Part shown: piece by piece, positions 38,978 through 55,953 of the stretch
How positions within the stretch are numbered: position 1 is the stretch's first letter
Layout: each line of letters opens with the position of its first letter
Assembly (NCBI RefSeq): GCF_040786275.1
Contig: NZ_JBFMVT010000002.1
Span: 3,968,001-4,032,000, forward strand
Source of the DNA: Buttiauxella gaviniae
GTDB lineage: Bacteria > Pseudomonadota > Gammaproteobacteria > Enterobacterales > Enterobacteriaceae
DNA length: 64,000 bases
Reading direction: 5' to 3'
Made by a program: the position numbers and the translations under genes
Notes under the pieces: generated by a model
Told to the model about the DNA's origin: nothing
The model's database searches: none
What the model saw: only the letters and a program-made list of their open reading frames with translations

Positions 38978-39040
38978 AAAGTTTGTTTCCTCTAAAACTA
39001 ACGATAAAATCGTGCTTCTTACATTTATTTGAAGTGCGCT

Positions 39041-41042: not shown

Positions 41043-41112
41043 AATCACGTTCTCTTGGTTTTTGTTATCACGGCCTGCGGTTGCCAGCAGGTGGCGTTGT
41101 TTATCTTTCTAT

Positions 41113-41343: not shown

Positions 41344-41991
41344 TTAGTGAGACAACATCTCATGAACAACCTGCTCTTTACTTAAAGAGTACTCATAGTA
41401 CGTCGGCCAGTTATCCATCTCTTTAAGCAGTTTTTCCTGCGAGTCGTTACCCATGAAAATATGGAAGTGTTCGGATTTACGCGGGCCAATAATATGATCG
41501 CTGAACTGAACATATTTAGGCGCTTTAGACTGGCTGTCCTTACATTCGAACAGATAGCGCACGCCTTTTTTGCCTGATTTATAGGTCAGGATTTTATGCC
41601 CGGCATAATCATATTTACACTCAGCCACGGTTTTGCCGGTATGGAACTCAATAACATTGTTTTCGATGCCGATCATATCAATATCGGTGGCGTAGCCTTT
41701 TTTATAATACTCTTTGTATTGCGCCGCCGTTTTGCTGCCATCTTTCTGTGCTTTTTTCTCCATTACCGGATCTAAATCGCCGTTTAACAGATAAGGATTG
41801 ACCGACTGCCACACGCCGTCCCAATCGCTTAATGCGCGGTCTTTCACGTTCTTATCTTCAAATACCCCTTCACTTGCTTTGCGTTCCACATCGGTAAGCG
41901 GTTTACCGTGCGAGTGGCTGTGCGCCAGAGCGTTAGCACTACTCAGCAAAATTCCCATGCTCAGAACCAGGGTCGAAATCCGTAATGTCAT
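41344..41991 (-). CDS. zinT: Periplasmic zinc/cadmium-binding protein ZinT
   Basis: Periplasmic metal chaperone that helps ZnuABC acquire zinc when it is scarce. It has 215 residues, as in E. coli (YodA/ZinT, 216). The signal peptide ends at ANALA, followed by the His-rich HSHSHGK. The calycin-like domain has [20 protein letters not shown] and the metal-site [12 protein letters not shown]. It is preceded by a strong Zur palindrome and transcribed alone. The C-terminus ends VVHEMLSH. Confidence 0.96.
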
Positions 41992-42020
41992 CAGCGTCTC
42001 CGTTTGTATGCCATGAAATT

Positions 42021-42051
42021 GTCGATAATGTTATAACATAACATTATCGAC
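42021..42051. promoter_or_regulatory. Zur box of zinT
   Basis: A 31-bp palindrome: GTCGATAATGTTAT, AAC centre, ATAACATTATCGAC. It matches the enteric Zur core GTTATA-N-TATAAC type with extended symmetry and lies 30-60 bases before zinT, so zinc repression is expected. Confidence 0.88.
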
Positions 42052-42076
42052 ATTCAACAGGTATGAAAACACTTTG

Positions 42077-43570
42077 TTACGTAGCGGCCTGGGTTAGAGG
42101 GGGGGTATATTTAATTATCCCGGCCAGGCGAATAAAAGAGGGCTCCATATCGCTGTCTTTTATACTGGCGAATCCGACCAATAACCCTTTTGATTTCTGA
42201 GCATTAAAATAGTAACGCGACAGCGGCCTCACCAAAATACCTGCGGCGTTCGCCTCTTTTGCAATGCCGACATCATCCGCCTGGGCAGGGAGCTGAATAA
42301 TAAGATGCAGACCGGCATTACTGCTGTAATACCCCAGATATTCTTCCCCTAAATGCTGTTTGATTAATTCCACTAACTGGTTTCGGCGCTTGCTATAAAG
42401 CTGGCGCATTTTACGGATATGGGCTGCGTAATAACCCTCTTTGATAAATTCCGCTAATGCGGCCTGCACAACCTGATGCCCACCGCGATAGAGCTCGTTA
42501 TGAACCTTCTTAAGCGGGGCGGATAAAGGCTTAGGTAATACGACATAACCCAGGCGCAGCGCGGGGTAGAGTGTTTTGCTAAAGGTGCCGATGTAAATCA
42601 CCGGGCTCTCTTCTTCCAGGCCCTGGAGCGAAGGGATAGGCTGGCCGGAGAAGCGGAATTCACTGTCATAATCATCTTCCACAATCCAGCTATTAAATTC
42701 CCGCGCAAGGGAGAGTAATAGCTGGCGGCGAGGAAGGCTCATCACGGAACCTAAAGGATATTGGTGCGAAGGGGTGACGAAAATTAATTTTGGCCGTTCG
42801 TCGGGTGACGTCTTGGGAACCAGCCCCTGGTCATCAACATCAAGCGCGGAAAACGTCACGGCATTCATGCGCAATATATTTTTAATTCCCCAATATCCGG
42901 GCTCTTCAATCCAGGCATGATCGCCTGGATTACAAATTGTGCGGGTGACTAAATCCAGCGCCTGATGAATCCCTTCGGTGATTAATATCTGATCGGTTGA
43001 ACATTTCACGCCGCGTGCGGTGCGCAAATAATCGGAGAGGGCAGATTTTAAAACTTCCAGGCCGCCTGCGGCATCATAGGTGAGATATTTCGGGTCTGGA
43101 CGCCGGGCAATAAGGTCATAAATCTTTTTAAAAGTACGGTGCGGAAAACTGTTTACGTCAGGCACGCCGGGAATGAAATCGCCCCACTGAGCGGGACTTG
43201 CGCTGGCATTTTCCAGCAGCGCAAGCCCGCGCTCAGAAAGGCTCGTCAATCCATCAGGCAGAGGCGTTTGAGCCGAACGCGCAACCTGCGTGTTGAGATT
43301 ATCGAGAACGCTTTCTGTCACAAACGTGCCGCTGCTGGTGCGCGTCGAAATATACCCCTCGGCCTGCAACTGTTCGTAAACGCGCAAAACGGTATTGCGC
43401 GAGAGCGCCAGTTCATTCGCTAAATCTCGCGTGGGCGGCATGCGTGCCGCGGGGCGCAAATTCCCCTCAAGAATTGAACTGCATATCGCAACATAAAGTT
43501 TCTTATGAAGTTTCTCGCCAGGCGTTTGAAGAAATGCCTGCTTGATCACATCTACGGCAAGTGAACGCAT
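42077..43570 (-). CDS. MocR/GabR-type regulator (HTH plus aminotransferase-like domain)
   Basis: A 497-residue MocR-family regulator: an N-terminal GntR winged helix (HKKLYVAICSSILEGNLRPA, MPPTRDLANELALSRNTVLR) joined to a fold-type I aminotransferase-like domain with the PLP lysine in YIGTFSKTLYPALRLGYVV. In the GabR model, PLP with GABA acts as the effector that activates gabTD. It is divergent from gabT across 110 bases, matching that role. ATG 43570 has AGGA 5 bases upstream; the frame runs on to 43726 without family match. Confidence 0.9.
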   Translation of the reverse strand: MRSLAVDVIKQAFLQTPGEKLHKKLYVAICSSILEGNLRPAARMPPTRDLANELALSRNTVLRVYEQLQAEGYISTRTSSGTFVTESVLDNLNTQVARSAQTPLPDGLTSLSERGLALLENASASPAQWGDFIPGVPDVNSFPHRTFKKIYDLIARRPDPKYLTYDAAGGLEVLKSALSDYLRTARGVKCSTDQILITEGIHQALDLVTRTICNPGDHAWIEEPGYWGIKNILRMNAVTFSALDVDDQGLVPKTSPDERPKLIFVTPSHQYPLGSVMSLPRRQLLLSLAREFNSWIVEDDYDSEFRFSGQPIPSLQGLEEESPVIYIGTFSKTLYPALRLGYVVLPKPLSAPLKKVHNELYRGGHQVVQAALAEFIKEGYYAAHIRKMRQLYSKRRNQLVELIKQHLGEEYLGYYSSNAGLHLIIQLPAQADDVGIAKEANAAGILVRPLSRYYFNAQKSKGLLVGFASIKDSDMEPSFIRLAGIIKYTPPLTQAAT

Positions 43571-43680
43571 TTGGATCCTAATATTAAAACGATTTGGCTC
43601 TCGATTCAGGTACCAGATACTGTCTAAATGGATCTCGACAATCAACCTGTATATCTGAATTGTGTGTGAGGGATAAAAAA

Positions 43681-44946
43681 ATGAGTAATAACGAACTCCA
43701 TCAACGTCGCCTGGCTGCCACTCCACGTGGGGTCGGCGTAATGTGTAATTTCTTTGCTCAAAAAGCGGAAAACAGCACCATCACCGATGTTGAAGGTAAG
43801 GAATATATCGATTTTGCCGCAGGGATTGCCGTGCTGAACACCGGCCATCGCCATCCTCGCCTGATGCAGGCGATTGAGCAGCAACTTCAGGCATTTACTC
43901 ATACCGCCTATCAAATCGTTCCTTATGAAAGTTATGTCTCCCTGGCTGAAAAAATTAACGCCGCCGCGCCTATTTTTGGGCCGAAGAAAACGGCATTTTT
44001 CACCACCGGTGCCGAAGCGGTAGAGAACGCGGTGAAAATTGCCCGCGCCCATACCGGTCGCCCAGGGGTGATTGCGTTTAGCGGCGGGTTCCATGGCCGC
44101 ACCTATATGACCATGGCGCTTACCGGCAAAGTGGCTCCGTATAAAATCGGCTTCGGGCCATTCCCAGGCTCCGTTTTCCATGCGCCGTACCCGTCAGAGC
44201 TGAACGGTATTTCTACTGATGACGCCGTGAAAGCCATTGAGCGCCTGTTTAAATCGGATATCGAAGCTACCCAGGTTGCGGCCATTATCTTTGAACCGGT
44301 GCAGGGCGAAGGGGGCTTTAACGTCGCGCCGCCTGAGTTTGTGGCTGCGATTCGCCAAATCTGTAACACCCACGGAATAGTGATGATCGCCGATGAAGTG
44401 CAAAGCGGCTTTGCCCGTACCGGCAAAATGTTCGCGATGAACCATTACGCGCATCAGCCTGATTTGATGACCATGGCGAAAAGCCTTGCGGGCGGCATGC
44501 CGTTATCGGGCGTTGTTGGTAAAGCGGAAATTATGGATGCGCCAGCCCCAGGTGGTTTAGGCGGCACTTATGCGGGTAACCCTCTGGCTGTGGCGTCGGC
44601 ACACGCCGTGCTGGATGTCATCACCGAAGAAAAATTGTGTTTACGCGCCCAGGCATTGGGCGAGCGCCTGACCTCGCGCCTGCGTGAAATCACCGCAACC
44701 TGCCCGGCGCTGGTGGAAATTCGCGGCCTGGGCTCAATGGTTGCCGCTGAATTTTATGATGCGGCAACGGGCGAGCCTTCAGCGGCTGTCGCGCAACAGG
44801 TTCAGAAACGTGCCCTGGAGCAGGGGCTACTGTTGCTGACCTGCGGGCAGAACGGGAACGTGATTCGCTTCCTCTATCCGCTGACGATTCCGGATGCCCA
44901 GTTTGATAAAGCGCTCGATATTATTAAAAACGCAACGCAGATGTGA
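43681..44946 (+). CDS. gabT: 4-aminobutyrate aminotransferase GabT
   Basis: PLP enzyme converting GABA and 2-oxoglutarate to succinate semialdehyde and glutamate; 421 residues (E. coli 426). Landmarks: FFTTGAEAVENAVKIARAHT, GFHGRTYMTMALTGK, IIFEPVQGEGGF, DEVQSGFARTGKMFA and the PLP lysine in MTMAKSLAGGMPLSG. ATG 43681 has GAGGG upstream; the frame from 43594 lies in the regulatory gap. It is followed by gabD eight bases later, forming a gabTD operon divergent from the GabR-type regulator. Confidence 0.95.
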   Translation: MSNNELHQRRLAATPRGVGVMCNFFAQKAENSTITDVEGKEYIDFAAGIAVLNTGHRHPRLMQAIEQQLQAFTHTAYQIVPYESYVSLAEKINAAAPIFGPKKTAFFTTGAEAVENAVKIARAHTGRPGVIAFSGGFHGRTYMTMALTGKVAPYKIGFGPFPGSVFHAPYPSELNGISTDDAVKAIERLFKSDIEATQVAAIIFEPVQGEGGFNVAPPEFVAAIRQICNTHGIVMIADEVQSGFARTGKMFAMNHYAHQPDLMTMAKSLAGGMPLSGVVGKAEIMDAPAPGGLGGTYAGNPLAVASAHAVLDVITEEKLCLRAQALGERLTSRLREITATCPALVEIRGLGSMVAAEFYDAATGEPSAAVAQQVQKRALEQGLLLLTCGQNGNVIRFLYPLTIPDAQFDKALDIIKNATQM

Positions 44947-44954
44947 GATGCCTG

Positions 44955-46406
44955 ATGATGAATTTAACGAATCCCGACCTGTTGCTTGATTCATGCCCGC
45001 TGGATGGGGAATGGAGCCACGCGCTTTCGGGCCAAAAAATGGCGGTTGTCAATGCGGCGACGGGCGAAAAAATTGCCGATGTGCCTTTGATGGGGCAGGC
45101 GGAAACTCAACGTGCGATCGCGGCTGCGGAACAGGCGCAGAAAGAGTGGAAAAAGCAGACGGCCGCCAGTCGGGCCAAAATTCTGCACCGTTGGGTCAGC
45201 CTGATTAATGAAAACAGCGACGATCTGGCGCGGTTGATCACCCTCGAAGGCGGCAAGCCGCTCGCCGAGGCGCGGGGTGAAGTGAACTATGCCGCGTCGT
45301 TTATTACCTGGTTTGCCGAAGAGGCAAAACGCGTGGATGGCGTGCTATTGCAGCCGACCAACGCCGATCAGCGCTTTATCGTATCGAAACAGCCGGTTGG
45401 CGTTTGCGCCGCTATCACACCGTGGAATTTCCCGGCGGCGATGATTACGCGCAAGGTCGCACCTGCGTTGGCTGCGGGCTGTGCGATTATCGTCAAGCCT
45501 GCGGAACAAACTCCGCTGACGGCGCTGGCGTTAGCCAAACTGGCGGAAGAGGCGGGTTTACCCAACGCGCTTTTGCAGGTGATTCCCGGAGATGCAAAAG
45601 AGATTGGCGGCGAGCTTTGCCGCAATGCCACGGTGCGAAAACTCAGTTTTACTGGCTCGACCGATACCGGACGTTTACTGATGGCGCAGTGCGCGCCGAC
45701 TATCAAAAAATTGTCACTGGAGTTGGGGGGTAACGCGCCTGTAATCGTCTTTGATGATGCGGATCTTGAGCTTGCCGTAAAAGGCATTCTGGCCTCCAAA
45801 TTCCGTAACAGCGGCCAGACCTGTGTGTGTGCAAATCGCATCTACGTTCAGAGCGGCATTTATCAGGCACTGAGTGCAGAACTGGTGAAGGCTGTCGAAG
45901 CATTGAAAGTGGGTAACGGCCTGGACGACGGCGTGACCCAGGGGCCGCTCATTAATGCTAAAGCGATAGATAAAGTTGAGCTGCATATTCAGGACGCGCT
46001 GGAAAAAGGCGCGACGCTATTAACCGGCGGGAAAAAACACCCGCTCGGCGGCAACTACTTTACGCCAACGATTGTGGCAAACGTCACCCAGGAGATGCGT
46101 TTTGCCAGGGAAGAGACGTTTGGCCCCGTTGCGCCGCTCTTCAAATTTGAAACCGACGAACAAGTGGTGAATTACGCCAATGACACGGAATTTGGCCTTG
46201 CCGCGTATATCTTTACTCAGAATGCGAAACGCCAATGGCAAATTCCCGAAGCGCTGGAATATGGCATGGTAGGCGTGAATACCGGTTTGATCTCCAACGA
46301 AGTTGCACCCTTTGGCGGAATTAAACAATCCGGGCTGGGCCGTGAAGGTTCTAGATTCGGTATTGAGGAGTATCTGGAGATGAAGTACGTCTGCGTCGCT
46401 CTGTAA
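44955..46406 (+). CDS. gabD: Succinate-semialdehyde dehydrogenase GabD
   Basis: Oxidises succinate semialdehyde to succinate with NADP+ or NAD+, feeding the TCA cycle; 483 residues (E. coli 482). Landmarks: ITPWNFPAAMITRKVAPALA, KKLSLELGGNAPVIVFDDAD (general-base Glu) and the catalytic Cys in NSGQTCVCANR. It ends with the family motif GREGSRFGIEEYLEMKYVC. ATG 44955 is preferred; a second ATG follows directly at 44958. Confidence 0.95.
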   Translation: MMNLTNPDLLLDSCPLDGEWSHALSGQKMAVVNAATGEKIADVPLMGQAETQRAIAAAEQAQKEWKKQTAASRAKILHRWVSLINENSDDLARLITLEGGKPLAEARGEVNYAASFITWFAEEAKRVDGVLLQPTNADQRFIVSKQPVGVCAAITPWNFPAAMITRKVAPALAAGCAIIVKPAEQTPLTALALAKLAEEAGLPNALLQVIPGDAKEIGGELCRNATVRKLSFTGSTDTGRLLMAQCAPTIKKLSLELGGNAPVIVFDDADLELAVKGILASKFRNSGQTCVCANRIYVQSGIYQALSAELVKAVEALKVGNGLDDGVTQGPLINAKAIDKVELHIQDALEKGATLLTGGKKHPLGGNYFTPTIVANVTQEMRFAREETFGPVAPLFKFETDEQVVNYANDTEFGLAAYIFTQNAKRQWQIPEALEYGMVGVNTGLISNEVAPFGGIKQSGLGREGSRFGIEEYLEMKYVCVAL

Positions 46407-46436
46407 TATCCGCGAAACTCAAACATCGCTTTAACG

Positions 46437-46509
46437 GGTGGATGGCGCTTGCGCTTATCCACCCTACAAAGTCCAGTTCGTAAATTGGGTAAGCGTAGCG
46501 CCACCCGAC
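46437..46509. repeat. REP element pair after gabD
   Basis: Two REP palindromes: 46437-46463 (GGTGGATGGCGC to ATCCACC) and 46485-46509 (TTGGGTAAGCG to CCACCCGAC) in inverse orientation, like the pair at 2787-2859. They separate gabTD from the permease gene. Confidence 0.85.
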
Positions 46510-46621
46510 ATCAATTTATCCAATCCTGAAGCCCCAAAACAGGGCAATTCTGCCCTTACTGCACCATGTTAATGCCTTGCGAATATCTTTAACAATTATG
46601 TGACATTGAGCGTATACATAT

Positions 46622-46634
46622 AACATATTATGTT
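46622..46634. promoter_or_regulatory. Operator-like palindrome before the APC permease gene
   Basis: AACATA-T-TATGTT, a perfect 13-bp palindrome, 51 bases before the permease start. The same half-sites recur before the aldehyde dehydrogenase gene at 49960-49992. It is a candidate binding site for the nearby GntR-family regulator. Confidence 0.5.
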
Positions 46635-46684
46635 TTATAAAATAGACACACTGCCTGCCCTTATGCCACATAAAGAGAAAAGAT

Positions 46685-48166
46685 ATGGAACAGACGACAG
46701 ACAAAGAAAACCATCAGCATCAGCCAGTTAAAGGCGAGCAATTCAATCGCTCGATAGGGCTGATGTCTAACTTCGCATTGGGATTCACCTACCTTTCACC
46801 TTTAACCGCAGTCTATTCGCTGTTCGCTTTAGCCGTCACACTCGCAGGCCCACCGGCAATTTGGTGGATATTGATTGTCGCCTGCGGTCAGTTGCTGGTG
46901 GCGCTGGTATTTGGTGAAGTGGCTTCTCAGTATCCGATTACCGGGGGCTTATACCCGTGGGCGAGAAGATTGTGGGGGAAAAAATATGCATGGATTGCCG
47001 CATGGATTTATCTCTGGGCATTAGTCGTCACCATCACTTCTATCGCGGAATACACCTCGACCTTCGTCGCCTCGCTATTTCACTACGCCACAAGTGCGGG
47101 CAACATGATGCTGACCTCCATCGTATTGCTGCTGATTATGATGGTTGTGAATATGTCCGGGACGAAAAATTTAGCCCGCGTGGCGAGAATAGGTTTTTGG
47201 TGTGAAATCGTCAGCGTTATTGCGCTTGGTATCTACCTGTTAATATTCCACCGTTCACAACCGTTCTCCGTTGTTTTTGATTCGATGGGGGTGCTTGCGA
47301 AAGACGGAAATTACACTACGGCCTTTATGTCTGCTTCGTTAATGGGCCTGTTTATGTTCTTTGGCTTCGAAGCCTGCGGCAACGTGGCGGAAGAAGTGAA
47401 AAACCCCGGTAAGAAAATTCCCGTTGCGATGATTTTAAGTATCGTCTTTGGGGCGATCTCAGCGGTTATTTCGATTATGGGTTACCTGCTTTCTTCTCCG
47501 GATTTGATTAATATCGTTAACGGGAAAATTTCAGACCCGATTCCGGCTATTCTGAACGAAGCATTAGGTGAGACTGGAGCCACGGTGTTTATTGTGGTTG
47601 CGATTATTGCCATGCTGTCATGCATTCTTTCTCTCCAGGCTGCGCTAAGCCGTCTGATATTTTCTTTCTCCCGCGATAATATGCTGCCGGGCAGCCAGTG
47701 GATGTCCAAAATATCCAAACACAGCGTGCCGGATAACGCCATGATGGTGAGCTGTTTGCTGCCGGTGATTATCTGTGTCTGGGTCTATTTCCAGCCGGAT
47801 AGCCTGGCGCGCATTACGGCCTTCGCGGTTATCGGGATCTACATTTCCTTCCAGATGGTGGTGCTGGCGGCGCTGCGTCAACGTCTGAAAGGCTGGAAAC
47901 CCGCGGGTGAATGGACGATTGGCTCCTGGGGCATTCTCGTCAACGTTCTGGCGTTAGCTTATGGCCTGTGCGGGATTTGGCTGCTGGCGCAACCGGCTGA
48001 AGGGGAGAGTTTTGTTGACCGCTGGACGGTGCTGGTGGGGCTTGCGATTGTCATCGGTTCGGGGCTGATTTATATGTTTATCACCAAACCGTTTGGCCGC
48101 TCAAACGCGCCGGAAAATGATGCGATTGAGCATGCCCGGAAGCTGACGGCACAACAAAATAATTAA
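46685..48166 (+). CDS. APC amino acid/choline-transporter-type permease
   Basis: A 493-residue inner-membrane permease of the ACT branch of the APC superfamily, which includes GABA and choline permeases. Landmarks: SIGLMSNFALGFTYLSPLTA, FGEVASQYPITGGLYPWARR and FGFEACGNVAEEVKNPGKKI. About 12 hydrophobic segments. Its place between gabTD and the aldehyde/spermidine oxidation operon suggests import of GABA or a related amine. Specificity is inferred from context only. Confidence 0.85.
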   Translation: MEQTTDKENHQHQPVKGEQFNRSIGLMSNFALGFTYLSPLTAVYSLFALAVTLAGPPAIWWILIVACGQLLVALVFGEVASQYPITGGLYPWARRLWGKKYAWIAAWIYLWALVVTITSIAEYTSTFVASLFHYATSAGNMMLTSIVLLLIMMVVNMSGTKNLARVARIGFWCEIVSVIALGIYLLIFHRSQPFSVVFDSMGVLAKDGNYTTAFMSASLMGLFMFFGFEACGNVAEEVKNPGKKIPVAMILSIVFGAISAVISIMGYLLSSPDLINIVNGKISDPIPAILNEALGETGATVFIVVAIIAMLSCILSLQAALSRLIFSFSRDNMLPGSQWMSKISKHSVPDNAMMVSCLLPVIICVWVYFQPDSLARITAFAVIGIYISFQMVVLAALRQRLKGWKPAGEWTIGSWGILVNVLALAYGLCGIWLLAQPAEGESFVDRWTVLVGLAIVIGSGLIYMFITKPFGRSNAPENDAIEHARKLTAQQNN

Positions 48167-48191
48167 GATTTAATATTGGATTCAGAATGTT

Positions 48192-48225
48192 GTATGTCGG
48201 GTGGCGCTGCGCTTACCCGACATAC
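48192..48225. repeat. REP element
   Basis: GTATGTCGGGTGGCGCTGC followed by GCTTACCCGACATAC; the outer 10 bases are exact complements. It lies between the convergent permease and Cache-protein genes. Confidence 0.85.
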
Positions 48226-48287
48226 AAAATACTGCGAACCGGGTTCGCTGGGGGAAGCGCAAGCGTCCTCCACCAGAACGTAAATGA

Positions 48288-48980
48288 TCAGCACTGAAAC
48301 AAATTAAAGTAATCATTCTCATAAACGAGAGTGGCCATTTTTGTATCCAGCAAATCCCCCACGCGAAATCTTGGATGCGTAGAAAACACAATTCTGCTGT
48401 CTTTATTGGTAAGAAAAACTTTATCGTTGATGGAGTAGGGTAATAGCTCCTCTTCAACGCGGCTTACCAATAGATCAATTGCGGCGACACCCAGAAACTG
48501 CTCTTTAAAATAGACCGGTACGGCGCAGGTGAGGGTATAAGAGGTATTACAGATATAATCGACATACGGGCCATGGATAAATGCATTCCCCACGGCAGGG
48601 GCTTGTTTAAACCACTCAAAGGTTCTGAAATCCAGACGCTGTTGCGTAGCCTGATCTAAATCGAGATTCACTTGCTTAACCCCATCGGCCTTCTTATACC
48701 ACCACTCAAGCAGCCAGAACTCTTTATTGCTGCTGGTGCTTTCTATGTGGCTGGCAAACCCGGCACCGGAGCAATAAACATTACTGTTAAGCGTGGTTTT
48801 AATATGCTGCTGAATCATATTTCTGACGGCGGGTTCAAGCAGATGCTCCAGATTAACATTCTCAATTTCAGCCAGCGAGGATTCAATCTCTTTGGCAAGT
48901 AAACCTGTAGATTCAATAGTAGAGTGAATGATGCTATCAATTTTTTGCGTAAGTTCTCGGATAGACGTTGTTAATAGCAT
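48288..48980 (-). CDS. Cytosolic Cache-domain (amine-sensor-like) protein
   Basis: A 230-residue protein with a Cache-type ligand-binding region at about residues 60-215. Visible features: FRTFEWFKQAPAVG (the R-x-x-W-F ligand motif), GPYVDYICNTSYTLTCAVPV, EQFLGVAAIDL. Residues 1-55 are helical, probably dimerising. There is no signal peptide, membrane segment or output domain, unusual for Cache domains, which normally sense outside the cell. It lies 25 bases after the GntR-family gene on the same strand, so the two probably act together. Amine or amino-acid binding is inferred from the motif and the polyamine context. Confidence 0.75.
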   Translation of the reverse strand: MLLTTSIRELTQKIDSIIHSTIESTGLLAKEIESSLAEIENVNLEHLLEPAVRNMIQQHIKTTLNSNVYCSGAGFASHIESTSSNKEFWLLEWWYKKADGVKQVNLDLDQATQQRLDFRTFEWFKQAPAVGNAFIHGPYVDYICNTSYTLTCAVPVYFKEQFLGVAAIDLLVSRVEEELLPYSINDKVFLTNKDSRIVFSTHPRFRVGDLLDTKMATLVYENDYFNLFQC

Positions 48981-49005
48981 AATTACACCTGGTTTTTAGG
49001 GTTTA

Positions 49006-49731
49006 TCAGTTTGCACTGTACTTCAATTTATTTTCTATCAGATAGAAGGTGAAGGTGTCGATTAAATCCTTAGCCATTTTAACGGACACCGATTCATTAT
49101 GTGACGCAAGCGTATCTATTAAGCTGCTATACAGCTCAACAATCTCACGGTGTATATTTTCTGAACGGAATGGAATCGCCACCAGAGATGACCACTCGGA
49201 TTGCAAAATCAGCTCCTGATTAGCAAGGCGAGCCGACTGAGAACACGCCGCAATGGCGAGTAAACAGCGCATATCCGCCTGGGTTCGCGCCTCAGGAGAG
49301 GTGGCGGAATTAAGCACCTCAACAAATTCGCGCAGGCGGGTAATATCCGCGTTGGTCATCCTGCGTGATGCAAGGCGTGCGCTGTGGCTAATAATTGCGC
49401 AATGCATTTCGCCCAGGTCGGAAAGGTAATCGGTGCTTAATGTTTTGAAAGGATTAAGAGTATTACTGAATTCCCACGCTTGTTCGCAGACAAAACTTCC
49501 GCCGTTACGCCCACGCACCGTGTGGATGAGATTATTGGCGCGCAGCGTATTCAGCGCTTCCCGAATCGTGATGTGCGAAACGCCCATCATTTTTGCAAGA
49601 TCCGCTTCATTAGGCAGTTGTTCGTTTGCCTCAAGCAAGCCAGTAATAATGGCGTTGGAAAGCCGCTGAACGATTTGATCGGAACGGCTGGCTTGACCGA
49701 TTGGCGCGAATATCACCGCATGAGTAATCAT
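49006..49731 (-). CDS. GntR-family regulator, FadR subfamily (FCD domain)
   Basis: A 241-residue regulator. The winged helix-turn-helix (QIVQRLSNAIITGLLEANEQ, LPNEADLAKMMGVSHITIRE) occupies residues 18-85. An all-helical FCD ligand domain follows, with metal-site-type His and Asp (MHCAIISHSARLASRRM). Divergent from the aldehyde dehydrogenase operon across 277 bases that hold repeats and an inverted repeat. It probably controls that operon and the permease; the Cache protein encoded downstream may modulate it (inference). Confidence 0.88.
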   Translation of the reverse strand: MITHAVIFAPIGQASRSDQIVQRLSNAIITGLLEANEQLPNEADLAKMMGVSHITIREALNTLRANNLIHTVRGRNGGSFVCEQAWEFSNTLNPFKTLSTDYLSDLGEMHCAIISHSARLASRRMTNADITRLREFVEVLNSATSPEARTQADMRCLLAIAACSQSARLANQELILQSEWSSLVAIPFRSENIHREIVELYSSLIDTLASHNESVSVKMAKDLIDTFTFYLIENKLKYSAN

Positions 49732-49920
49732 AATATTCCTTGATGAAACAATCCTTTAAATGAACGTCTAAACATAGCATACAACCCCTTTTTAATGAAG
49801 GAAGCCTTAACTATTCGACCTCGTCCGCCGCAACATTTAGTGCCCATCTGGCGTGCTTTAAACAGCGTGATTATCGGCTGCTAATTGCATAGCAAAAAAT
49901 CCATTCGAAGTGGGATGTAT

Positions 49921-49942
49921 ATCATATTGTTATCATATTGTT
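49921..49942. promoter_or_regulatory. Tandem 11-bp direct repeat in the divergent promoter region
   Basis: ATCATATTGTT occurs twice in perfect tandem (49921-49931, 49932-49942). The 11-bp period places both copies on the same face of the helix, as for side-by-side regulator binding. It lies about 70 bases before the aldehyde dehydrogenase start. Confidence 0.5.
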
Positions 49943-49959
49943 GTTGAATTTAATCTTTA

Positions 49960-49992
49960 TTAAACATATTACATAATATAATTTATGTTTAA
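49960..49992. promoter_or_regulatory. Inverted repeat before the aldehyde dehydrogenase operon
   Basis: TTAAACATA (49960-49968) and TATGTTTAA (49984-49992), separated by 15 AT-rich bases, just before ATG 50009. The half-sites match the palindrome before the permease at 46622-46634, so a shared regulator is likely. Confidence 0.5.
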
Positions 49993-50008
49993 ACGACCGG
50001 AGAGCACA

Positions 50009-51436
50009 ATGAAAATCCTCAAACATTTTATCAATGGGCAGTATGTTTCAGGGGCAGAGGAGAATCTCTTCGACCTCGTGAGTCCGGTCAATGGCGAGAC
50101 GTACGCGCTGTCACCGAGCGCCGGGCCTGCGGAAGTTGATCAGGCTTACACTGCCGCTAAAAGCGCATTCGCCATCTGGAAACACTCCACGCCCGCCCAA
50201 CGACAGCGTGCGCTGCTAAAACTGGCCGATGAAATCGAGCGCAACATGGACAGGCTGACCGAAGCGCAAAGCGAAGAAACAGGCCAGCTACGTCACTTCA
50301 TCGAAAAGGAAGAAATTGCCGCATCCTGCGATGCGCTGCGTTTTTTTGCCGGAGCCGCCCGATGTCTGGAAGGCAAAGCGTCCTATGAATATTCCGCCGG
50401 TTTAACCTCGACGATTCGCCGTGAACCTCTGGGGATCGTCGGGCAGGTCACGCCGTGGAACTACCCGTTTATGATGGCGGTGTGGAAAATTGCGCCAGCA
50501 CTGGCCGCCGGAAATACGGTGGTGCTTAAACCGAGTGACACGACGCCAATCAGCACCTTGATTCTTGCCGAACTCGCCGCGCCAATCTTCCCGCAGGGGG
50601 CGTTTAACGTGGTGCTTGGTAAAGCTGAAACGGGCTCGCTGGTGGTTTCAAGCCCGGAAGCCTCGCTGGTTTCTATTACCGGTTCGGTACGCGCAGGGTT
50701 ACAGGTGGCGGCGTCTGCGGCGGCAAACCTCACCAAAGCGCACCTGGAACTGGGCGGCAAAGCGCCGGTTATTGTGTTTGCGGATGCGGACATAGCTAAA
50801 GCGGTCGACACCATCACTACCGCCGGGTTCTTTAACGCCGGGCAAGACTGTACCTCCGCGACGCGCATTCTGATTGAAGACTCAATTTATGAGCCATTCC
50901 TTGAGCAACTGGTCAGCAAAACCCGCGAAATTAAATTTGGCACGCCGGACGACAAAGAGGCGTTATATGGCGCGTTGAATAGCCGTAATCAGCTTGAGCA
51001 GGTAAAAGGCTTTATTAGCCGCCTGCCGTCGCACGCCAAAATTGAAACCGGCGGCAAACCCGGCGCGGGCCCAGGTTTCTATTTTGAACCGACGATTATT
51101 TCCGGGCTTGAACAGCGCGACGAGGCTATTCAGCACGAAGTCTTTGGCCCGGTAATGACGGTGCAGAAATTCAGTTCTGAAGAAGAGGCGCTCGATAAAG
51201 CAAATGACGTGGAATATGGCCTGGCCGCCAGTATCTGGACCAGCAACCACGGTCGCGCCCAGCGTTTTAGCATTCGCCTGGATTTTGGCACCGTATGGAT
51301 CAACAACCACATTCCACTTTGCGCTGAAATGCCCCACGGCGGCTTCAAAAAATCTGGCTACGGGAAGGATTTGTCATCCTACTCGCTGGATGAATACACG
51401 CGTGTGAAACATATTATGTGCGATATCTCCGAATAA
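50009..51436 (+). CDS. Aminobutyraldehyde dehydrogenase, PatD-like
   Basis: An NAD-dependent aldehyde dehydrogenase of 475 residues, closest in pattern to E. coli gamma-aminobutyraldehyde dehydrogenase PatD (474). Landmarks: RREPLGIVGQVTPWNYPFMM, AHLELGGKAPVIVFADADIA and the catalytic Cys in NAGQDCTSATR; C-terminus SYSLDEYTRVKHIM. It would turn 4-aminobutanal, the spermidine dehydrogenase product, into GABA for GabT. ATG 50009 has GGAGAG 4 bases upstream. First of four genes spaced 6 to 22 bases apart. Confidence 0.88.
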   Translation: MKILKHFINGQYVSGAEENLFDLVSPVNGETYALSPSAGPAEVDQAYTAAKSAFAIWKHSTPAQRQRALLKLADEIERNMDRLTEAQSEETGQLRHFIEKEEIAASCDALRFFAGAARCLEGKASYEYSAGLTSTIRREPLGIVGQVTPWNYPFMMAVWKIAPALAAGNTVVLKPSDTTPISTLILAELAAPIFPQGAFNVVLGKAETGSLVVSSPEASLVSITGSVRAGLQVAASAAANLTKAHLELGGKAPVIVFADADIAKAVDTITTAGFFNAGQDCTSATRILIEDSIYEPFLEQLVSKTREIKFGTPDDKEALYGALNSRNQLEQVKGFISRLPSHAKIETGGKPGAGPGFYFEPTIISGLEQRDEAIQHEVFGPVMTVQKFSSEEEALDKANDVEYGLAASIWTSNHGRAQRFSIRLDFGTVWINNHIPLCAEMPHGGFKKSGYGKDLSSYSLDEYTRVKHIMCDISE

Positions 51437-51453
51437 AATAATAAGGTGATGAA

Positions 51454-51930
51454 ATGAAAACCATTAAAGTCGCGGCACTCTCCCTTGCGCTCTTCTCTCA
51501 TTTAGCGCTGGCAGACGTTTCACCGTTAACCGTGGTGAAAGATTATATGTCCGCATGGAATGCCCATGATTCCGCCAAAGCGGCGCAATATCTGGCAAAC
51601 GATGTAGTGTATTACGATGCGGCAGCCGGTACGCCGGTTAAAGGTAAAAACAATGCTGAGAAAGATGTCATCGGCGCCTTTATTAAAGCCGTTCCCGACC
51701 TTACCTGGAAAATGACCAGCAAACCGGTTTATGACCACGACACCATTGCTTTTCGCTGGGAATTTAGCGGAAAAAATAGCGGCGAATGGGCTGGGGCTCC
51801 GGCAACGAATAACCCCATCAAATTTGAAGGCGTCAGTTATATCACCGTCAATAATGGGAAAATTACCTGGCAGGGGGATTATTACGACTCTAAGAAATTA
51901 GACGAAGAGTTAAAACCCCAGGCTAAATAA
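51454..51930 (+). CDS. Exported SnoaL/NTF2-like protein
   Basis: A 158-residue protein with a Sec signal peptide (MKTIKVAALSLALFSHLALA). The mature part has the SnoaL-like polyketide-cyclase/NTF2 fold pattern: VKDYMSAWNAHDSAKAAQYL, VIGAFIKAVPDLTWKMTSKP, ITWQGDYYDSKKLDEEL. SnoaL-like proteins are small-molecule-binding or isomerising domains; here the position between the aldehyde dehydrogenase and spermidine dehydrogenase genes suggests a periplasmic accessory role. Function unproved. Confidence 0.78.
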   Translation: MKTIKVAALSLALFSHLALADVSPLTVVKDYMSAWNAHDSAKAAQYLANDVVYYDAAAGTPVKGKNNAEKDVIGAFIKAVPDLTWKMTSKPVYDHDTIAFRWEFSGKNSGEWAGAPATNNPIKFEGVSYITVNNGKITWQGDYYDSKKLDEELKPQAK

Positions 51931-51952
51931 TCAGCACCAGATAAGGTTTTAT

Positions 51953-53845
51953 ATGTCGATTACCAGACGTGATTTTCTCAACGGCGTTGCCATTACGATT
52001 GCCGCAGGGCTGACACCTCTCGACCTTGCAAAAGCGTCGGGTAAAGCCAGCGCAATGATGGGTGAGGAGTATTATCCTCCCCAGTTGACCGGGCTGCGTG
52101 GAAACCATCCGGGCTCTTTTGAAATGGCCCATGCGATTGGTCGCGATCATGAAAAATTCAGTACTGAGCATCTTCCTGTTGAAGAAGAATATGATCTTGT
52201 CATCGTCGGCGGCGGTCTTAGCGGATTATCCGCCGCCAGTTTCTGGCACGATCTGGCGGGTAAAAATAGCAAAGTGCTGGTTCTCGATAATCATGACGAC
52301 TTTGGCGGGCACGCTAAACGAAATGAATTTAAAGCCGCTGGCAAAAAGATTATTGGCTACGGCGGGAGCGAGGCTTTCCAGTCGCCAACGCGAAATTTCA
52401 GCCCGGTAGTTAATGGCCTGATGTCGACGGTGGGCGTCAGCGTCACCCGAATGAAGAAAAGTTTTGACGTTAATTTCTACCCGGATCTTAATCTCAGCCG
52501 CGGGGTATTTTTCGACAAAAAGAATTTTGGCGAAACCAAAATTGTTGGCGGCGATCCGGGGCGGGCGGTAGCCGATGATATTCCCCCAGACAGACTTAAT
52601 GGCCGTAGTCTTGAAGCATTTATCAATGATTTCCCATTAAGCGAAAGCGACCGCAAAGCTATTCTCGATTTATACGTTAAGCCGGTGGATTACCTGAAAG
52701 GGATGTCGGTTGAGGAGAAAACCGAGTGGATGGACACCCACAGCTACCGGGATTTTCTGGTGGAAAAAGTGGGCCTGAGCAAAATGGCGGTGATGTATTT
52801 CCAGCAGCGTACCAATGACTTTTTTGCCATTGGTATCGAAGGTGTGAGCTGCAGCGATGCCAGAACCTGCGCGCTGCCGGGCATGGAGGCGATGGAATTA
52901 CCGCCGCTTGATGAAGAAGCCCTCGCGGATCTCGAAGAACCTTACGTTTACCATCTCCCTGACGGCAATGCCGGACTTGCGCGGTTGATTGTCAGGCATT
53001 TGATTCCGGAAGCCTTACCCGGCACCACGATGGAAGATTCCATCACCTCGCGGCTTAATTATGAAAAGCTCGATCGCCAGGACAACACCACGCGCATTCG
53101 CCTCAACAGTATCGTTATTAATGCCGCGAATACCGATGACGGCGTGGTAGTGACGTACATCAATGACGGGAAAGCGCACCGTATTAAGGGGCGAAAGGCA
53201 GTGATGGCGGGGTACAACATGATGATCCCGTATCTGGTGCCGGAAACGCCGGAGCAGCAGAAAGCGGATCTGCGCCTGAATGTGAAAGCGCCGCTGGTTT
53301 ACACCAATGTGGTCGTCAAAAACTGGCAGGCGTTTACCCAGCTTGGCATTCACGAATTCTATTCCCCCGCCGCACCGTACAGCCGCGTCAAACTCGATTA
53401 CCCGGTCAGTCTGGGGAGTTATCAGCATTCGCAGGCGGCGGATCAGCCCATGTGCCTGCATATGGTTTATGTCCCGACTTACCCTGGCAGCAAACTCAGC
53501 GCCCGCGAACAGTTCCGCCAGGGTCGCGCCTATTTGCTCGGCACCCCTTTCGAGACGCACGAAAACATGATCCGCTCGCAGCTTCAGGAGATGCTCGGGC
53601 AAACCGGCTTTGACCACGAGCGCGATATTACCGCCATCACCGTAAACCGCTGGGCGCACGGCTACGCGTATTACGCCAGCGCTCTGTTCGATGATATGGA
53701 CAAAATGCCGGAAATCGTTGAGCGGGCGCGTAAGCCGATTGGCCGAATCGCCATCGCTAACTCCGATTCAGACTGGGATGCCTACGCCCACACGGCGATT
53801 GACCAGGCGTGGCGTGCGGTCAACGAACTTAAAGCGATGGGATGA
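51953..53845 (+). CDS. Tat-exported spermidine dehydrogenase-like flavoprotein
   Basis: A 630-residue FAD protein with a twin-arginine signal (SITRRDFLNGVAITIAAGL, R5-R6), so it is exported folded with cofactor. The FAD fold is YDLVIVGGGLSGLSAASFW (residues 80-98), then VLVLDNHDDFGGHAKRNEF. The sequence before it, YYPPQLTGLRGNHPGSFEMA, and GYGGSEAFQSP are hallmarks of the family I associate with spermidine dehydrogenase SpdH (Pseudomonas PA3713, Citrobacter enzyme). That enzyme cleaves spermidine to 1,3-diaminopropane and 4-aminobutanal with an artificial or cytochrome acceptor. Neighbours fit: an aminobutyraldehyde dehydrogenase upstream, a triheme cytochrome c six bases downstream, and gabTD nearby. 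Other amines cannot be excluded. Confidence 0.75.
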   Translation: MSITRRDFLNGVAITIAAGLTPLDLAKASGKASAMMGEEYYPPQLTGLRGNHPGSFEMAHAIGRDHEKFSTEHLPVEEEYDLVIVGGGLSGLSAASFWHDLAGKNSKVLVLDNHDDFGGHAKRNEFKAAGKKIIGYGGSEAFQSPTRNFSPVVNGLMSTVGVSVTRMKKSFDVNFYPDLNLSRGVFFDKKNFGETKIVGGDPGRAVADDIPPDRLNGRSLEAFINDFPLSESDRKAILDLYVKPVDYLKGMSVEEKTEWMDTHSYRDFLVEKVGLSKMAVMYFQQRTNDFFAIGIEGVSCSDARTCALPGMEAMELPPLDEEALADLEEPYVYHLPDGNAGLARLIVRHLIPEALPGTTMEDSITSRLNYEKLDRQDNTTRIRLNSIVINAANTDDGVVVTYINDGKAHRIKGRKAVMAGYNMMIPYLVPETPEQQKADLRLNVKAPLVYTNVVVKNWQAFTQLGIHEFYSPAAPYSRVKLDYPVSLGSYQHSQAADQPMCLHMVYVPTYPGSKLSAREQFRQGRAYLLGTPFETHENMIRSQLQEMLGQTGFDHERDITAITVNRWAHGYAYYASALFDDMDKMPEIVERARKPIGRIAIANSDSDWDAYAHTAIDQAWRAVNELKAMG

Positions 53846-53851
53846 GCGAAC

Positions 53852-55036
53852 ATGAAACAGATTGTTATGGCGATGGGATGTTTGCTTTTTACCGGGAATG
53901 CCGCTGCGCAGTCGGCGGGCGAATATATGGCAAAAGTGTCGGATTGTGCGGCCTGCCACACGGCAGTGGGCGGGCAACCGATGGCGGGTGGGAAAAAGTT
54001 CTCAACGCCCGTCGGGGATATTTACGCCACCAATATTACGCCGGACAAAACCAGCGGGATTGGCGATTACACCCGGCAAGATTTTGAAAAGGCCGTCAGG
54101 CAGGGGATTGCGAAAGACGGGCATCCGCTGTACCCCGCGATGCCGTATCCGTCCTACGCCAAAATGACCGACAAAGATATTGACGATCTCTATGATTATT
54201 TCATGAAAGAGGTGCCTGCTTCTAATGTGAAAAACCCGCGCAATGAGATTCCGTGGCTGCTTTCCGCCCGCTGGCCGCTGCATATCTGGAACTGGTTATT
54301 CGTTGATGAAGCGAAAGCCGGTGAAGTTAAAACAGGCGAAGTTAAAACAGGCGAAACCAGCGCCAAAAAACCTGATGCTACTCTGCTCGCTCGCGGGGCT
54401 TATTTAGTTGAAGGGCCGGGCCACTGCGGGGCCTGCCATACGCCGCGAGGCGTGACGATGCAGGAAAAAGCCTATGACGGCTCAAGCGACCTTTTCCTGA
54501 GCGGAGCCATGATCGACGGCTGGTATGCGCCATCGTTGCGAAATCTCTCGATGCCGCCAGAAGAGTTAAAAGACCTGCTGCGAATGGGAAGAAGCCAGCA
54601 CGGCGCCATATCCGGGCCAATGAGCGAGGTGATTACCCAGAGCACGCAATATTTAACCGATGGCGATCTGGAGGCGATTTCCTCGTACCTGCTGAGTTTT
54701 AACCCTAAGAATGTCACACCGGTCTCCAGCGACGGAGCCGTGAGGTATTCCCCAACGGATGGGAAAACGCTTTATTCCATGTACTGTTCGACCTGTCATG
54801 GGGATGACGGTAAGGGCAAAGATTTCACCGTGCCTTCTTTAGTCAATAACTCAATTATTACGGCCAAAGATCCTGCCTCGCTGATTTCGATAATTAATCA
54901 GGGAGCGGAAACGCCGCAAACGCAGGGCAATATTTCCTGGAAAATGCCCGCGTATAAAGACGTGATGTCTAAAGAAGAGAAGGATAACCTGGTGAATTAC
55001 GTTCGCGGTACATGGGGAAATAAAACCGATAAGTAG
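53852..55036 (+). CDS. Triheme cytochrome c
   Basis: A 394-residue periplasmic cytochrome with a signal peptide (ending GNAAA) and three CxxCH haem sites: CAACH (32-36), CGACH (192-196), CSTCH (312-316). The layout matches cytochrome subunits of membrane alcohol/aldehyde or flavoprotein dehydrogenases. It likely takes electrons from the preceding flavoprotein and passes them to quinone or an oxidase. The link between domains 1 and 2 contains AGEVKTGEVKTGETSAKK, encoded by 15-bp tandem repeats. Last gene of the four-gene operon; start spaced six bases from the previous stop. Confidence 0.92.
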   Translation: MKQIVMAMGCLLFTGNAAAQSAGEYMAKVSDCAACHTAVGGQPMAGGKKFSTPVGDIYATNITPDKTSGIGDYTRQDFEKAVRQGIAKDGHPLYPAMPYPSYAKMTDKDIDDLYDYFMKEVPASNVKNPRNEIPWLLSARWPLHIWNWLFVDEAKAGEVKTGEVKTGETSAKKPDATLLARGAYLVEGPGHCGACHTPRGVTMQEKAYDGSSDLFLSGAMIDGWYAPSLRNLSMPPEELKDLLRMGRSQHGAISGPMSEVITQSTQYLTDGDLEAISSYLLSFNPKNVTPVSSDGAVRYSPTDGKTLYSMYCSTCHGDDGKGKDFTVPSLVNNSIITAKDPASLISIINQGAETPQTQGNISWKMPAYKDVMSKEEKDNLVNYVRGTWGNKTDK

Positions 55037-55046
55037 TATTTTCAGA

Positions 55047-55090
55047 AAGGTAAGCGGTCTGCTCTGCTAAAACAGATCAGACGCTTACTT
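55047..55090. terminator. Hairpin between convergent cytochrome c and gspO genes
   Basis: AAGGTAAGCGGTCTGCTCTG pairs, with two mismatches, with CAGATCAGACGCTTACTT around loop CTAAAA. It lies in the 77-base gap between convergent operons and probably ends both. No long T-run is present. Confidence 0.65.
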
Positions 55091-55113
55091 ATCCCTCCAT
55101 CGTTCGCCTTAAC

Positions 55114-55953
55114 TCAGGCCGCCAGATAAAGAAAATACCCCCCAGATAAAATCAGCCACGGGCCAAAGGCGACCGGTTGGTTTAGCTTTTGGCGGTAAAA
55201 CAAATGCATAGCACCCGCGCCAACTAAGCCCCCAACGGCGGCAAATGTCACCAGCTCCGGCAGTATCTCCCAGCCCAACCAGGCGCCAAGCGCTGCCAGT
55301 AATTTGGCATCGCCACCGCCCAGCGCGGCTTTGCCGGTCAACTGCGAGAAGATAAACGCCAGCAGCGCAAAGGAGAGATACCCGCAAATTGCCCCGATGA
55401 CCGCGCTCTGTAATGGCACAAATGCGCCGTCAAAATTGACCACTAAACCTATCCAGATTAACGGCAGCGTCAGCACATCGGGTAACAGCATGGTTTGCGC
55501 GTCAATAACCGCCAGCGCCAACAAAAATGCGATAAACAATAAGCCTGCAGCAAGGTTTATTCCCGGCGGCCAAAGTAACCCTGCGAGAACAAATAATAAT
55601 CCGCAGGTCAGTTCCACCAGCGGGTAACGCAATGAAATGGATTGCTGGCAGCAGCGGCTTTTGCCGCGCAACAGGCACCAGCTAAGTACCGGGACTAAAT
55701 CACGGCGCAAGATGGGCTGCTGGCAGGCGCAACATGCCGAAGGGGGCCAGCAAAGGTTATATATTTTCCCGGGGATATGGGGAATATCCAGCGTCTGTCG
55801 GGCTTCTTCCCGCCATTTTTCGGCAAGCATTTTTGGCAGTCGCCAGATCACGACATTCAAAAAACTGCCGATTAATAACCCGGTAACGCCTAACAGCGCA
55901 AGCCAGACGGCGGGGTGCGAATAAGCCAGCTCGGTTAACAGCATTTGCTTCAC
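55114..55953 (-). CDS. gspO: Type II secretion prepilin peptidase GspO
   Basis: Inner-membrane aspartic protease and N-methyltransferase that matures GspG-K pseudopilins; 279 residues. Catalytic aspartates are in ALAVIDAQTMLLPDV and LGGGDAKLLAALGAWLG. The cytosolic zinc-type loop has CCACQQPI and SRCCQQSI, where the second pair is adjacent rather than the usual C-x2-C. Translation probably starts at GTG 55953, which overlaps the gspB stop (GTGA); ATG 55944 is an alternative. Last gene of the operon. Confidence 0.93.
   Translation of the reverse strand: MKQMLLTELAYSHPAVWLALLGVTGLLIGSFLNVVIWRLPKMLAEKWREEARQTLDIPHIPGKIYNLCWPPSACCACQQPILRRDLVPVLSWCLLRGKSRCCQQSISLRYPLVELTCGLLFVLAGLLWPPGINLAAGLLFIAFLLALAVIDAQTMLLPDVLTLPLIWIGLVVNFDGAFVPLQSAVIGAICGYLSFALLAFIFSQLTGKAALGGGDAKLLAALGAWLGWEILPELVTFAAVGGLVGAGAMHLFYRQKLNQPVAFGPWLILSGGYFLYLAA

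What the first reader, a model, noticed from the sequence alone, without database searches (positions are those of the whole stretch)
42077..55036. Self-contained polyamine-to-succinate locus with periplasmic entry
Seen: GabR-type regulator, gabT, gabD, an APC permease, a Cache protein with a GntR regulator, then an operon of PatD-like dehydrogenase, exported SnoaL-like protein, Tat-exported SpdH-like flavoprotein and triheme cytochrome c. Known: spermidine dehydrogenases give 4-aminobutanal plus 1,3-diaminopropane; PatD-type enzymes give GABA; GabT/GabD give succinate. Inference: spermidine is oxidised outside the inner membrane with electrons passed to the cytochrome, and the aldehyde or its cyclic form enters the cell. 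The standard enteric Puu and patA routes are cytosolic, so a periplasmic respiratory route in an enteric is notable.
Basis: partly seen in the sequence, partly recalled or inferred. Interest (0 to 1): 0.72.

Follow-up and report, generated by a model that had tools for sequence, protein, structure and literature searches.

The report
Periplasmic spermidine dehydrogenase operon
A Buttiauxella gene cluster encodes an exported enzyme that very probably breaks down polyamines outside the inner membrane and passes the electrons to its own three-haem cytochrome; the enzyme type is long known in gut bacteria, but this cytochrome partner and a cytosolic sensor-regulator pair look like new details.

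Summary
The 630-residue protein is a spermidine dehydrogenase (SpdH): 54.6% identical over 626 residues to crystallised P. aeruginosa SpdH, with the Tat motif and both haem-b ligands conserved in 51 of 51 aligned SpdHs. Downstream is a triheme cytochrome c related to subunits of alcohol, glucose and fructose dehydrogenases; 43 of 44 named loci have it beside spdH. The operon's dehydrogenase is of the aminobutyraldehyde type; four other loci have PatD within 5 kb instead, which fits 4-aminobutanal as product.

Corrections: 'gabT' is PuuE-type (80.5%); 'GabR' is only MocR-family; puuA is missing from this genome, but patA and patD exist elsewhere. Spermidine dehydrogenases of Serratia and Citrobacter are cited in the literature, so the enzyme itself is no surprise.

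Additional: the Cache protein has a dCache fold but no membrane helix and sits by a GntR regulator; an inverted repeat ACATAA-N6-TTATGT precedes the operon in 29 of 30 cassette loci. The only haem-copper oxidase detected is a ubiquinol oxidase, so electrons probably enter the quinone pool. Function is inferred throughout.

The parts
42077..43570 (-).
   Evidence: Pfam GntR + Aminotran_1_2; NCBIfam PdxR over cut-off, GabR far below; shorter start inferred from sequence
43684..44946 (+). PuuE-type 4-aminobutyrate transaminase
   Evidence: NCBIfam PRK09792 839 bits, cut-off 747; 80.5% to E. coli PuuE, 53.5% to GabT
44958..46406 (+). succinate-semialdehyde dehydrogenase (gabD-like)
   Evidence: TIGR01780 707 bits, cut-off 646; PRK11241 718 bits, below its cut-off 828; 60% to E. 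coli GabD
46616..46633 (.). candidate operator before the permease gene, ACATATAACATATTATGT (1 mismatch to ACATAA-N6-TTATGT)
   Evidence: found within 150 bp of the permease start at up to 2 mismatches in 17 of 29 loci
46685..48166 (+). APC-superfamily permease, part of the cassette; substrate unknown
   Evidence: Pfam AA_permease_2; no NCBIfam cut-off reached; present in 28 of 28 cassette loci
48288..48980 (-). dCache-fold protein without membrane helix, candidate cytosolic amine sensor
   Evidence: AlphaFold2 pLDDT 75.9, pTM 0.78; Foldseek best hits CqsR (serinol, ethanolamine) and, lower, McpU with putrescine; hydropathy
49006..49731 (-). GntR/FCD regulator, same direction as the dCache gene
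   Evidence: Pfam GntR + FCD
49971..49988 (.). candidate operator ACATAATATAATTTATGT, perfect ACATAA-N6-TTATGT inverted repeat
   Evidence: 0 mismatches; present at up to 1 mismatch in 29 of 30 cassette loci
50009..51436 (+). aminobutyraldehyde-type dehydrogenase, cytosolic by lack of a signal (the frame also has an ATG at 49985, inside the candidate operator)
   Evidence: NF010000 645 bits, cut-off 615; 47.5% to E. coli PatD
51454..51930 (+). exported SnoaL/NTF2-fold protein, accessory
   Evidence: Pfam SnoaL; AlphaFold2 pLDDT 86.5 and SnoaL-family Foldseek hits; missing from 5 of 28 cassette loci; export inferred from the N-terminus
51953..53845 (+). SpdH, Tat-motif FAD + haem b spermidine dehydrogenase; haem ligands His60 and His569 (Pa His54, His562)
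53852..55036 (+). periplasmic triheme cytochrome c, partner of SpdH
   Evidence: 296 bits to quinone alcohol dehydrogenase cytochrome subunit 8gy2_B; 3 CxxCH; adjacent in 43 of 44 loci

Best explanation
The operon 50009-55036 is a periplasmic respiratory polyamine dehydrogenase module. SpdH is folded with FAD and haem b, exported by Tat, and cleaves spermidine (and probably spermine) to 1,3-diaminopropane plus 4-aminobutanal/1-pyrroline. Electrons go FAD to surface haem b to the triheme cytochrome c and then into the quinone pool, ending at a quinol oxidase such as cytochrome bo3. The C4 aldehyde (or its cyclic imine) reaches the cytosol, by diffusion or through the neighbouring permease, and is oxidised to GABA by the operon's aminobutyraldehyde-type dehydrogenase, then to succinate by the PuuE-type transaminase and GabD. 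The GntR regulator with its cytosolic dCache partner senses a polyamine-type amine and controls both the operon and the permease gene through the ACATAA-N6-TTATGT repeat. Shown by sequence: family identities, export signals, haem-binding residues, synteny, conservation of the repeat, only one haem-copper oxidase detected. Inferred: substrate, electron order, quinone as acceptor, uptake, sensing and regulation.
For: SpdH is full-length homologous to solved SpdH, with haem ligands 51/51, and the two residues changed in PDB entries 7d9i and 7d9j (Pa Asp282, Tyr443) conserved 46/51 and 49/51. P. aeruginosa SpdH passes electrons from FAD to haem b (PMC12564564, part 1 of the text and passages read). 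Cytochrome family and 3 haem sites; spdH-cytochrome adjacency 43/44 named loci, 9/9 in the fetched stretches L133-L141, and in L081 but not L082. Two different aminobutyraldehyde dehydrogenases lie near spdH: the cassette enzyme in 28 of 44 loci, and PatD with ydc transporter genes directly upstream in L134 and L135, 2.5 kb upstream in Franconibacter L065 and 4.8 kb upstream in L136. ccmF present. One haem-copper oxidase match in the genome, and it is CyoB; in Aeromonas cyoA/cyoB lie directly upstream, divergent, in 4 of the 7 named Aeromonas loci whose ORFs I listed (family confirmed for L066 only). Operator. dCache fold.
Against: No biochemical data for this organism. The cytochrome lacks a membrane anchor (the two Neisseriaceae versions have a C-terminal hydrophobic stretch) and the solved alcohol dehydrogenase cytochrome runs about 58 residues further, so how it reaches quinone is unclear. 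Cytochrome bd and other acceptors were not searched. Two loci at about 60% identity have SpdH without the cytochrome: L077 (18.4 kb held) and L082 (1.5 kb each side). SpdH relatives at 37-44% show no adjacent cytochrome in 5 of 5 stretches of about 1.5 kb each side (L083, L084, L094, L095, L099). One cassette locus (L133) has only a degenerate operator. The repeat was not found at the permease promoter in 12 of 29 loci, and 44 other matches at up to 2 mismatches, 7 of them at up to 1, occur elsewhere in the same stretches. No copy precedes the gab-type genes.
Confidence: 0.75

Rival explanations
1. Same enzyme, but the natural substrate is spermine or another long polyamine, or the purpose is removal of toxic external polyamines rather than growth on them.
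For: P. aeruginosa SpdH acts on spermine and spermidine (PMC9397018 and PMC12564564, passages). SpdH-cytochrome pairs occur without a close aldehyde dehydrogenase relative beside them in the Aeromonas and Atlantibacter stretches.
Against: 28 of 44 loci carry an aminobutyraldehyde-type dehydrogenase and 23 of these 28 also a PuuE-type GABA transaminase in the fetched stretch, which fits use as nutrient and a C4 product.
Confidence: 0.35
2. The triheme cytochrome is not the electron exit to quinone; SpdH hands electrons from haem b to another acceptor, or the cytochrome feeds a periplasmic reductase or peroxidase.
For: The enteric cytochromes have no membrane anchor; P. aeruginosa SpdH accepts artificial acceptors and transfers electrons to an electrode without a cytochrome partner (PMC12564564); L077, L082 and the distant SpdH relatives have no adjacent cytochrome.
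Against: Tight operon spacing (6 bp), 43/44 adjacency, and family membership with cytochrome subunits of dehydrogenases that are known to reduce quinone (general knowledge).
Confidence: 0.2
3. The flavoprotein is an SpdH paralogue acting on a different, non-polyamine amine.
For: Overall identity is 55%, so specificity could differ.
Against: The residues mutated in the SpdH crystal structures are conserved (that they lie in the active site is my inference); linkage to aminobutyraldehyde dehydrogenases and GABA transaminase; spermidine dehydrogenase activity is cited for Citrobacter freundii and related Citrobacter species carry this gene.
Confidence: 0.07

Closest known systems
Pseudomonas aeruginosa SpdH (PA3713; PDB 7d9f)
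   Same: 54.6% identity over 626 residues, Tat motif, both haem-b His ligands and the two residues mutated in 7d9i and 7d9j
   Different: here in an operon with a triheme cytochrome, aldehyde dehydrogenase and SnoaL-like protein; the P. aeruginosa neighbourhood was not examined here
Spermidine dehydrogenases of Serratia marcescens and Citrobacter freundii (biochemical literature, seen only as citations)
   Same: enzymes of enteric bacteria with FAD and/or haem giving 1,3-diaminopropane and 4-aminobutanal; the Citrobacter enzyme is titled membrane-bound; other Citrobacter species carry the same cassette
   Different: no triheme cytochrome partner is mentioned in the passages I saw; [quoted passage not shown]
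Triheme cytochrome subunits of alcohol, glucose and fructose dehydrogenases (8gy2_B, 8hdd_B, 7w2j_C)
   Same: homologous over nearly the whole length with three haem sites
   Different: partner dehydrogenase is SpdH; no membrane-binding tail in enteric copies
Puu and PatA-PatD routes of E. coli
   Same: aldehyde dehydrogenase, PuuE-type transaminase and GabD steps
   Different: first step is periplasmic and respiratory; puuA is absent from this genome and present in 3 of 12 genus genomes, patA and patD are present in 12 of 12
Actinobacterial stand-alone intracellular dCache_1AM protein in an operon with a transcription factor (PMC10104139, passages)
   Same: membrane-free dCache protein next to a transcription factor gene (a figure legend of that paper names GntR among its domains)
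   Different: here in enterics, inside a polyamine cassette, with a candidate operator

Membership tests
SpdH (haem-b flavoprotein spermidine dehydrogenase) | full-length homology to P. aeruginosa SpdH | tested here: met
   769 bits, residues 1-626 of 630; 54.6% identity
SpdH (haem-b flavoprotein spermidine dehydrogenase) | bis-His haem-b ligands (Pa His54, His562) | tested here: met
   His60 and His569, 51 of 51 sequences
SpdH (haem-b flavoprotein spermidine dehydrogenase) | Tat signal | tested here: met
   RRDF within the first 25 residues in 51 of 51; motif only, no signal-peptide predictor was run
SpdH (haem-b flavoprotein spermidine dehydrogenase) | oxidises spermidine or spermine | not testable with these tools
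   needs assay
Triheme cytochrome subunit of membrane-bound dehydrogenases | three CxxCH and homology to solved subunits | tested here: met
Triheme cytochrome subunit of membrane-bound dehydrogenases | membrane-binding tail or helix | tested here: not met
   no hydrophobic stretch beyond the signal peptide (highest 19-residue hydropathy 0.99 after residue 60); no tail in the window protein
Aminobutyraldehyde dehydrogenase (PatD-like) | over curated subfamily cut-off | tested here: met
   NF010000 645 bits, cut-off 615; but the narrower equivalog TIGR03374, 513 bits, cut-off 909, is not met
GabR | over NCBIfam GabR cut-off | tested here: not met
   299 bits, cut-off 600
dCache_1AM amine sensors | dCache fold | tested here: met
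   126 Foldseek matches at E 0.001 or better; the 50 rows shown are mostly dCache-type sensor domains; Pfam dCache_1 is below its cut-off, 33.4 against 45, MCP-like_PDC_1 above, 30.5 against 27
dCache_1AM amine sensors | amine motif: aromatic pair and final Asp kept, carboxylate-binding Arg of the amino-acid motif missing | tested here: inconclusive
   in weak profile alignments Trp123-Phe124 and Asp169 line up with the aromatic pair and final Asp, and Phe121 stands at the Arg position (my reading, residue roles partly recalled); no structure-based residue mapping was done (library missing)

The most novel reading that the evidence does not exclude
SpdH and the triheme cytochrome form a dedicated two-protein periplasmic spermidine:quinone oxidoreductase with a four-haem relay (one b, three c) in bacteria with no cytochrome c oxidase detected, and the GntR-dCache pair is a cytosolic polyamine switch made from a sensor domain that normally works outside the membrane.
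Probability: 0.45. Interest if true: 0.55.

Novelty: new variant of a known kind. Interest (0 to 1): 0.4.

Why it matters
It supplies candidate genes, a candidate electron acceptor and a candidate regulator for a spermidine dehydrogenase activity reported from enteric bacteria decades ago, and it exposes an annotation gap: Pfam and NCBIfam gave no SpdH-named model for this protein, and Duffyella records call it an NAD(P)-binding protein. Placing the enzyme in the periplasm would let a cell consume outside polyamines without draining its own spermidine pool (inference). The GntR-dCache pair and its candidate operator give a testable ligand prediction.

Tried and rejected
Amine-oxidase Pfam model PF01593 on the own genome: three short hits, none at SpdH, so this model does not detect the family here. 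E. coli genomes hold no near match to the operon DNA. GabR identity of the regulator: rejected on score. GabT identity: replaced by PuuE type. Known RNA elements in 39000-58500: none at gathering threshold. Sigma-70 consensus scan: fewer promoter-like hits than shuffles, uninformative. Third operator-like site at 43491 lies inside the MocR-family gene, off any promoter, taken as chance. In the window alone, the 5 hits at up to 2 mismatches are only weakly above shuffles (5 of 100 shuffles reach 5), so the case for the operator rests on position and conservation. Its control is weak in one respect: many of those stretches are from GC-rich Aeromonas (recalled), where an AT-rich motif is unlikely anyway. 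SnoaL-like protein: fold clear but no function could be assigned; a role in imine hydrolysis was considered without evidence. The original papers on the Serratia, Citrobacter and P. aeruginosa enzymes did not appear in my listings; I saw only citations of them. The searches (spermidine + triheme cytochrome + dehydrogenase; polyamine + cytochrome c + periplasmic + spermidine oxidation) returned no paper. The ORF picker missed several cytochromes on the strand opposite to a long chance ORF; the no-cytochrome statements were therefore rechecked by tblastn and by CxxCH counts in all six frames, which added L082 as an exception.
Full report
What is there. The window lies in a Buttiauxella-type genome: the nearest named relatives of its SpdH are Buttiauxella records at 89-92%, and 12 of 12 genomes of the genus searched carry it (in one, G005, split over two contigs).

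SpdH. The flavoprotein matches the crystallised P. aeruginosa spermidine dehydrogenase over its whole length (54.6% identity). In 51 aligned sequences the two histidines that hold haem b in the P. aeruginosa enzyme (His54 and His562, PMC12564564) are invariant, and the residues altered in PDB entries 7d9i and 7d9j are conserved in 46 and 49 of 51; the exceptions are four distant relatives and L029 for the first, L095 and L029 for the second. The Tat motif is present in 51 of 51. A tree of 29 rows puts P. aeruginosa SpdH with the enteric, Aeromonas and Neisseriaceae sequences (97/99 support for the joint group, with a long-branch warning).

Distribution. Full-length SpdH at 59% identity or more occurs in 21 of 198 genomes of the family sample (24 pass the loose threshold), in 7 of 295 of the order sample (18 pass) and only in the window's genome of 369 in the class sample (9 pass, one further genome with a full-length 42% match). 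The samples overlap. So it is patchy. Duffyella gerundensis carries it on a plasmid of 571-581 kb (3 records).

Synteny. Of 44 named loci, 43 have the cytochrome next to spdH; L077 does not. 28 of 44 carry permease, dCache, GntR, aldehyde dehydrogenase, spdH and cytochrome in the same order (Buttiauxella, Citrobacter, Cedecea, Kluyvera and some loosely named Enterobacteriaceae). The SnoaL-like gene is in 23 of these 28. MocR-family and PuuE-type genes are in the fetched stretch of 23 of 28, upstream in 9 Buttiauxella loci and downstream in 12 Citrobacter loci, Kluyvera and RIT714; gabD was found only in the 9 Buttiauxella stretches. Flanks were at most 10 kb, so absence means absence there. 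Atlantibacter and Aeromonas show the pair without the cassette genes. In L134 and L135 the pair instead has patD and ydc transporter genes directly upstream; in Franconibacter L065 and in L136 patD lies 2.5 and 4.8 kb upstream. Two aldehyde dehydrogenases that are only 47.5% identical, each near spdH in different genera, are good genomic evidence that the product is 4-aminobutanal. Loci of one genus are not independent, so these counts are not event counts. Among further stretches, L133-L141 have the cytochrome in 9 of 9, L081 has it and L082 (60%) does not.

Electron path. The cytochrome belongs with the triheme subunits of alcohol, glucose and fructose dehydrogenases, which reduce quinone (general knowledge). 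ccmF is encoded. The haem-copper oxidase model PF00115 finds one match in the genome, and it is CyoB, a ubiquinol oxidase, with CyoA beside it. No cytochrome c oxidase was therefore detected, and quinone is the likeliest end point; cytochrome bd, peroxidases and nitrate or nitrite reductases were not searched. In four of seven named Aeromonas loci with listed ORFs, cyoA- and cyoB-like genes stand divergently next to spdH (confirmed by family search for L066), a suggestive neighbour. Against a simple copy of the alcohol dehydrogenase scheme: the enteric cytochrome has no anchor, whereas the two Neisseriaceae versions end in a hydrophobic helix. A paralogue elsewhere in the genome, beside a gene with molybdopterin-binding domains, has an N-terminal hydrophobic stretch. 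The docking of a soluble triheme cytochrome to the membrane is an open point.

Regulation. The dCache protein has no membrane helix and its model (pLDDT 75.9, lower in residues 81-150) matches dCache-type sensors, first CqsR (apo, serinol, ethanolamine), then among others McpU with putrescine and TlpQ; amino-acid sensors are among the hits as well, so the fold alone does not fix the ligand. A stand-alone intracellular amine-type dCache protein in an operon with a transcription factor is described for Actinobacteria (PMC10104139, passages). An inverted repeat ACATAA-N6-TTATGT begins within 40 bp of the aldehyde dehydrogenase start in the window and all 28 cassette loci at up to 1 mismatch; the further cassette locus L133 has only a 3-mismatch form at the same place, so 29 of 30. 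A related form precedes the permease in 17 of 29 loci at up to 2 mismatches. Elsewhere in the same 29 stretches there are 44 matches at up to 2 mismatches, about 0.07 per kb; 7 of them are at up to 1 mismatch, six at one place inside the MocR-family gene of Buttiauxella. One search scanned 26 stretches, 449,405 bases: 24 without the cassette, the truncated Buttiauxella contig L074, and L133; no site at up to 1 mismatch was found. A promoter element conserved for other reasons is not excluded.

Metabolic setting. puuA is missing from this genome and present in 3 of 12 genus genomes (the other matches are partial at 31-33%, of glutamine-synthetase type by my reading). patA and patD orthologues at 84-87% are present in 12 of 12. 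The locus therefore adds a spermidine entry to a genome that already has the genes of a cytosolic putrescine route and lacks puuA; it is not the only polyamine route.

Known or new. Spermidine dehydrogenases of Serratia and Citrobacter with FAD and/or haem are old biochemistry, seen here as citations. [quoted passage not shown] Listings (open-licence papers only; I read passages of five papers, not every listed one) showed me no paper that describes the triheme partner or GntR-dCache regulation of SpdH. I rate it a new variant of a known kind: known enzyme, partner and regulator candidates that I did not find described.

Noticed in passing
G000 C2:3465000-3473500 (L132): A second triheme cytochrome (36% to the SpdH partner) with an N-terminal hydrophobic stretch, next to genes with molybdopterin-binding and [2Fe-2S] domains: possibly a periplasmic aldehyde dehydrogenase (my reading).
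   Followed up: partly
L070:4103-5398 and L079:8676-9977: The two Neisseriaceae SpdH-partner cytochromes carry a C-terminal hydrophobic helix that the 15 enteric and Aeromonas copies aligned with them lack.
   Followed up: partly
G009 C1:2263191-2264335: The partner cytochrome of one genus member is split over two frames, possibly a frameshift or an assembly error.
   Followed up: no
   Followed up: partly
window 55114-58117: Prepilin peptidase and GspA/GspB-like genes (labels by my reading of the sequences) start 77 bp downstream on the minus strand; in four Buttiauxella loci relatives lie about 1.2 kb from the cytochrome, and none was found in the other fetched stretches.
   Followed up: no
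window 41344-41991: A histidine-rich, apparently exported protein that looks like ZinT (label recalled, not searched).
   Followed up: no
window 51454-51930: The SnoaL-like exported protein is highly conserved when present (85% mean column identity over 22 sequences) but was not found in five cassette loci; its function is unexplained.
   Followed up: partly
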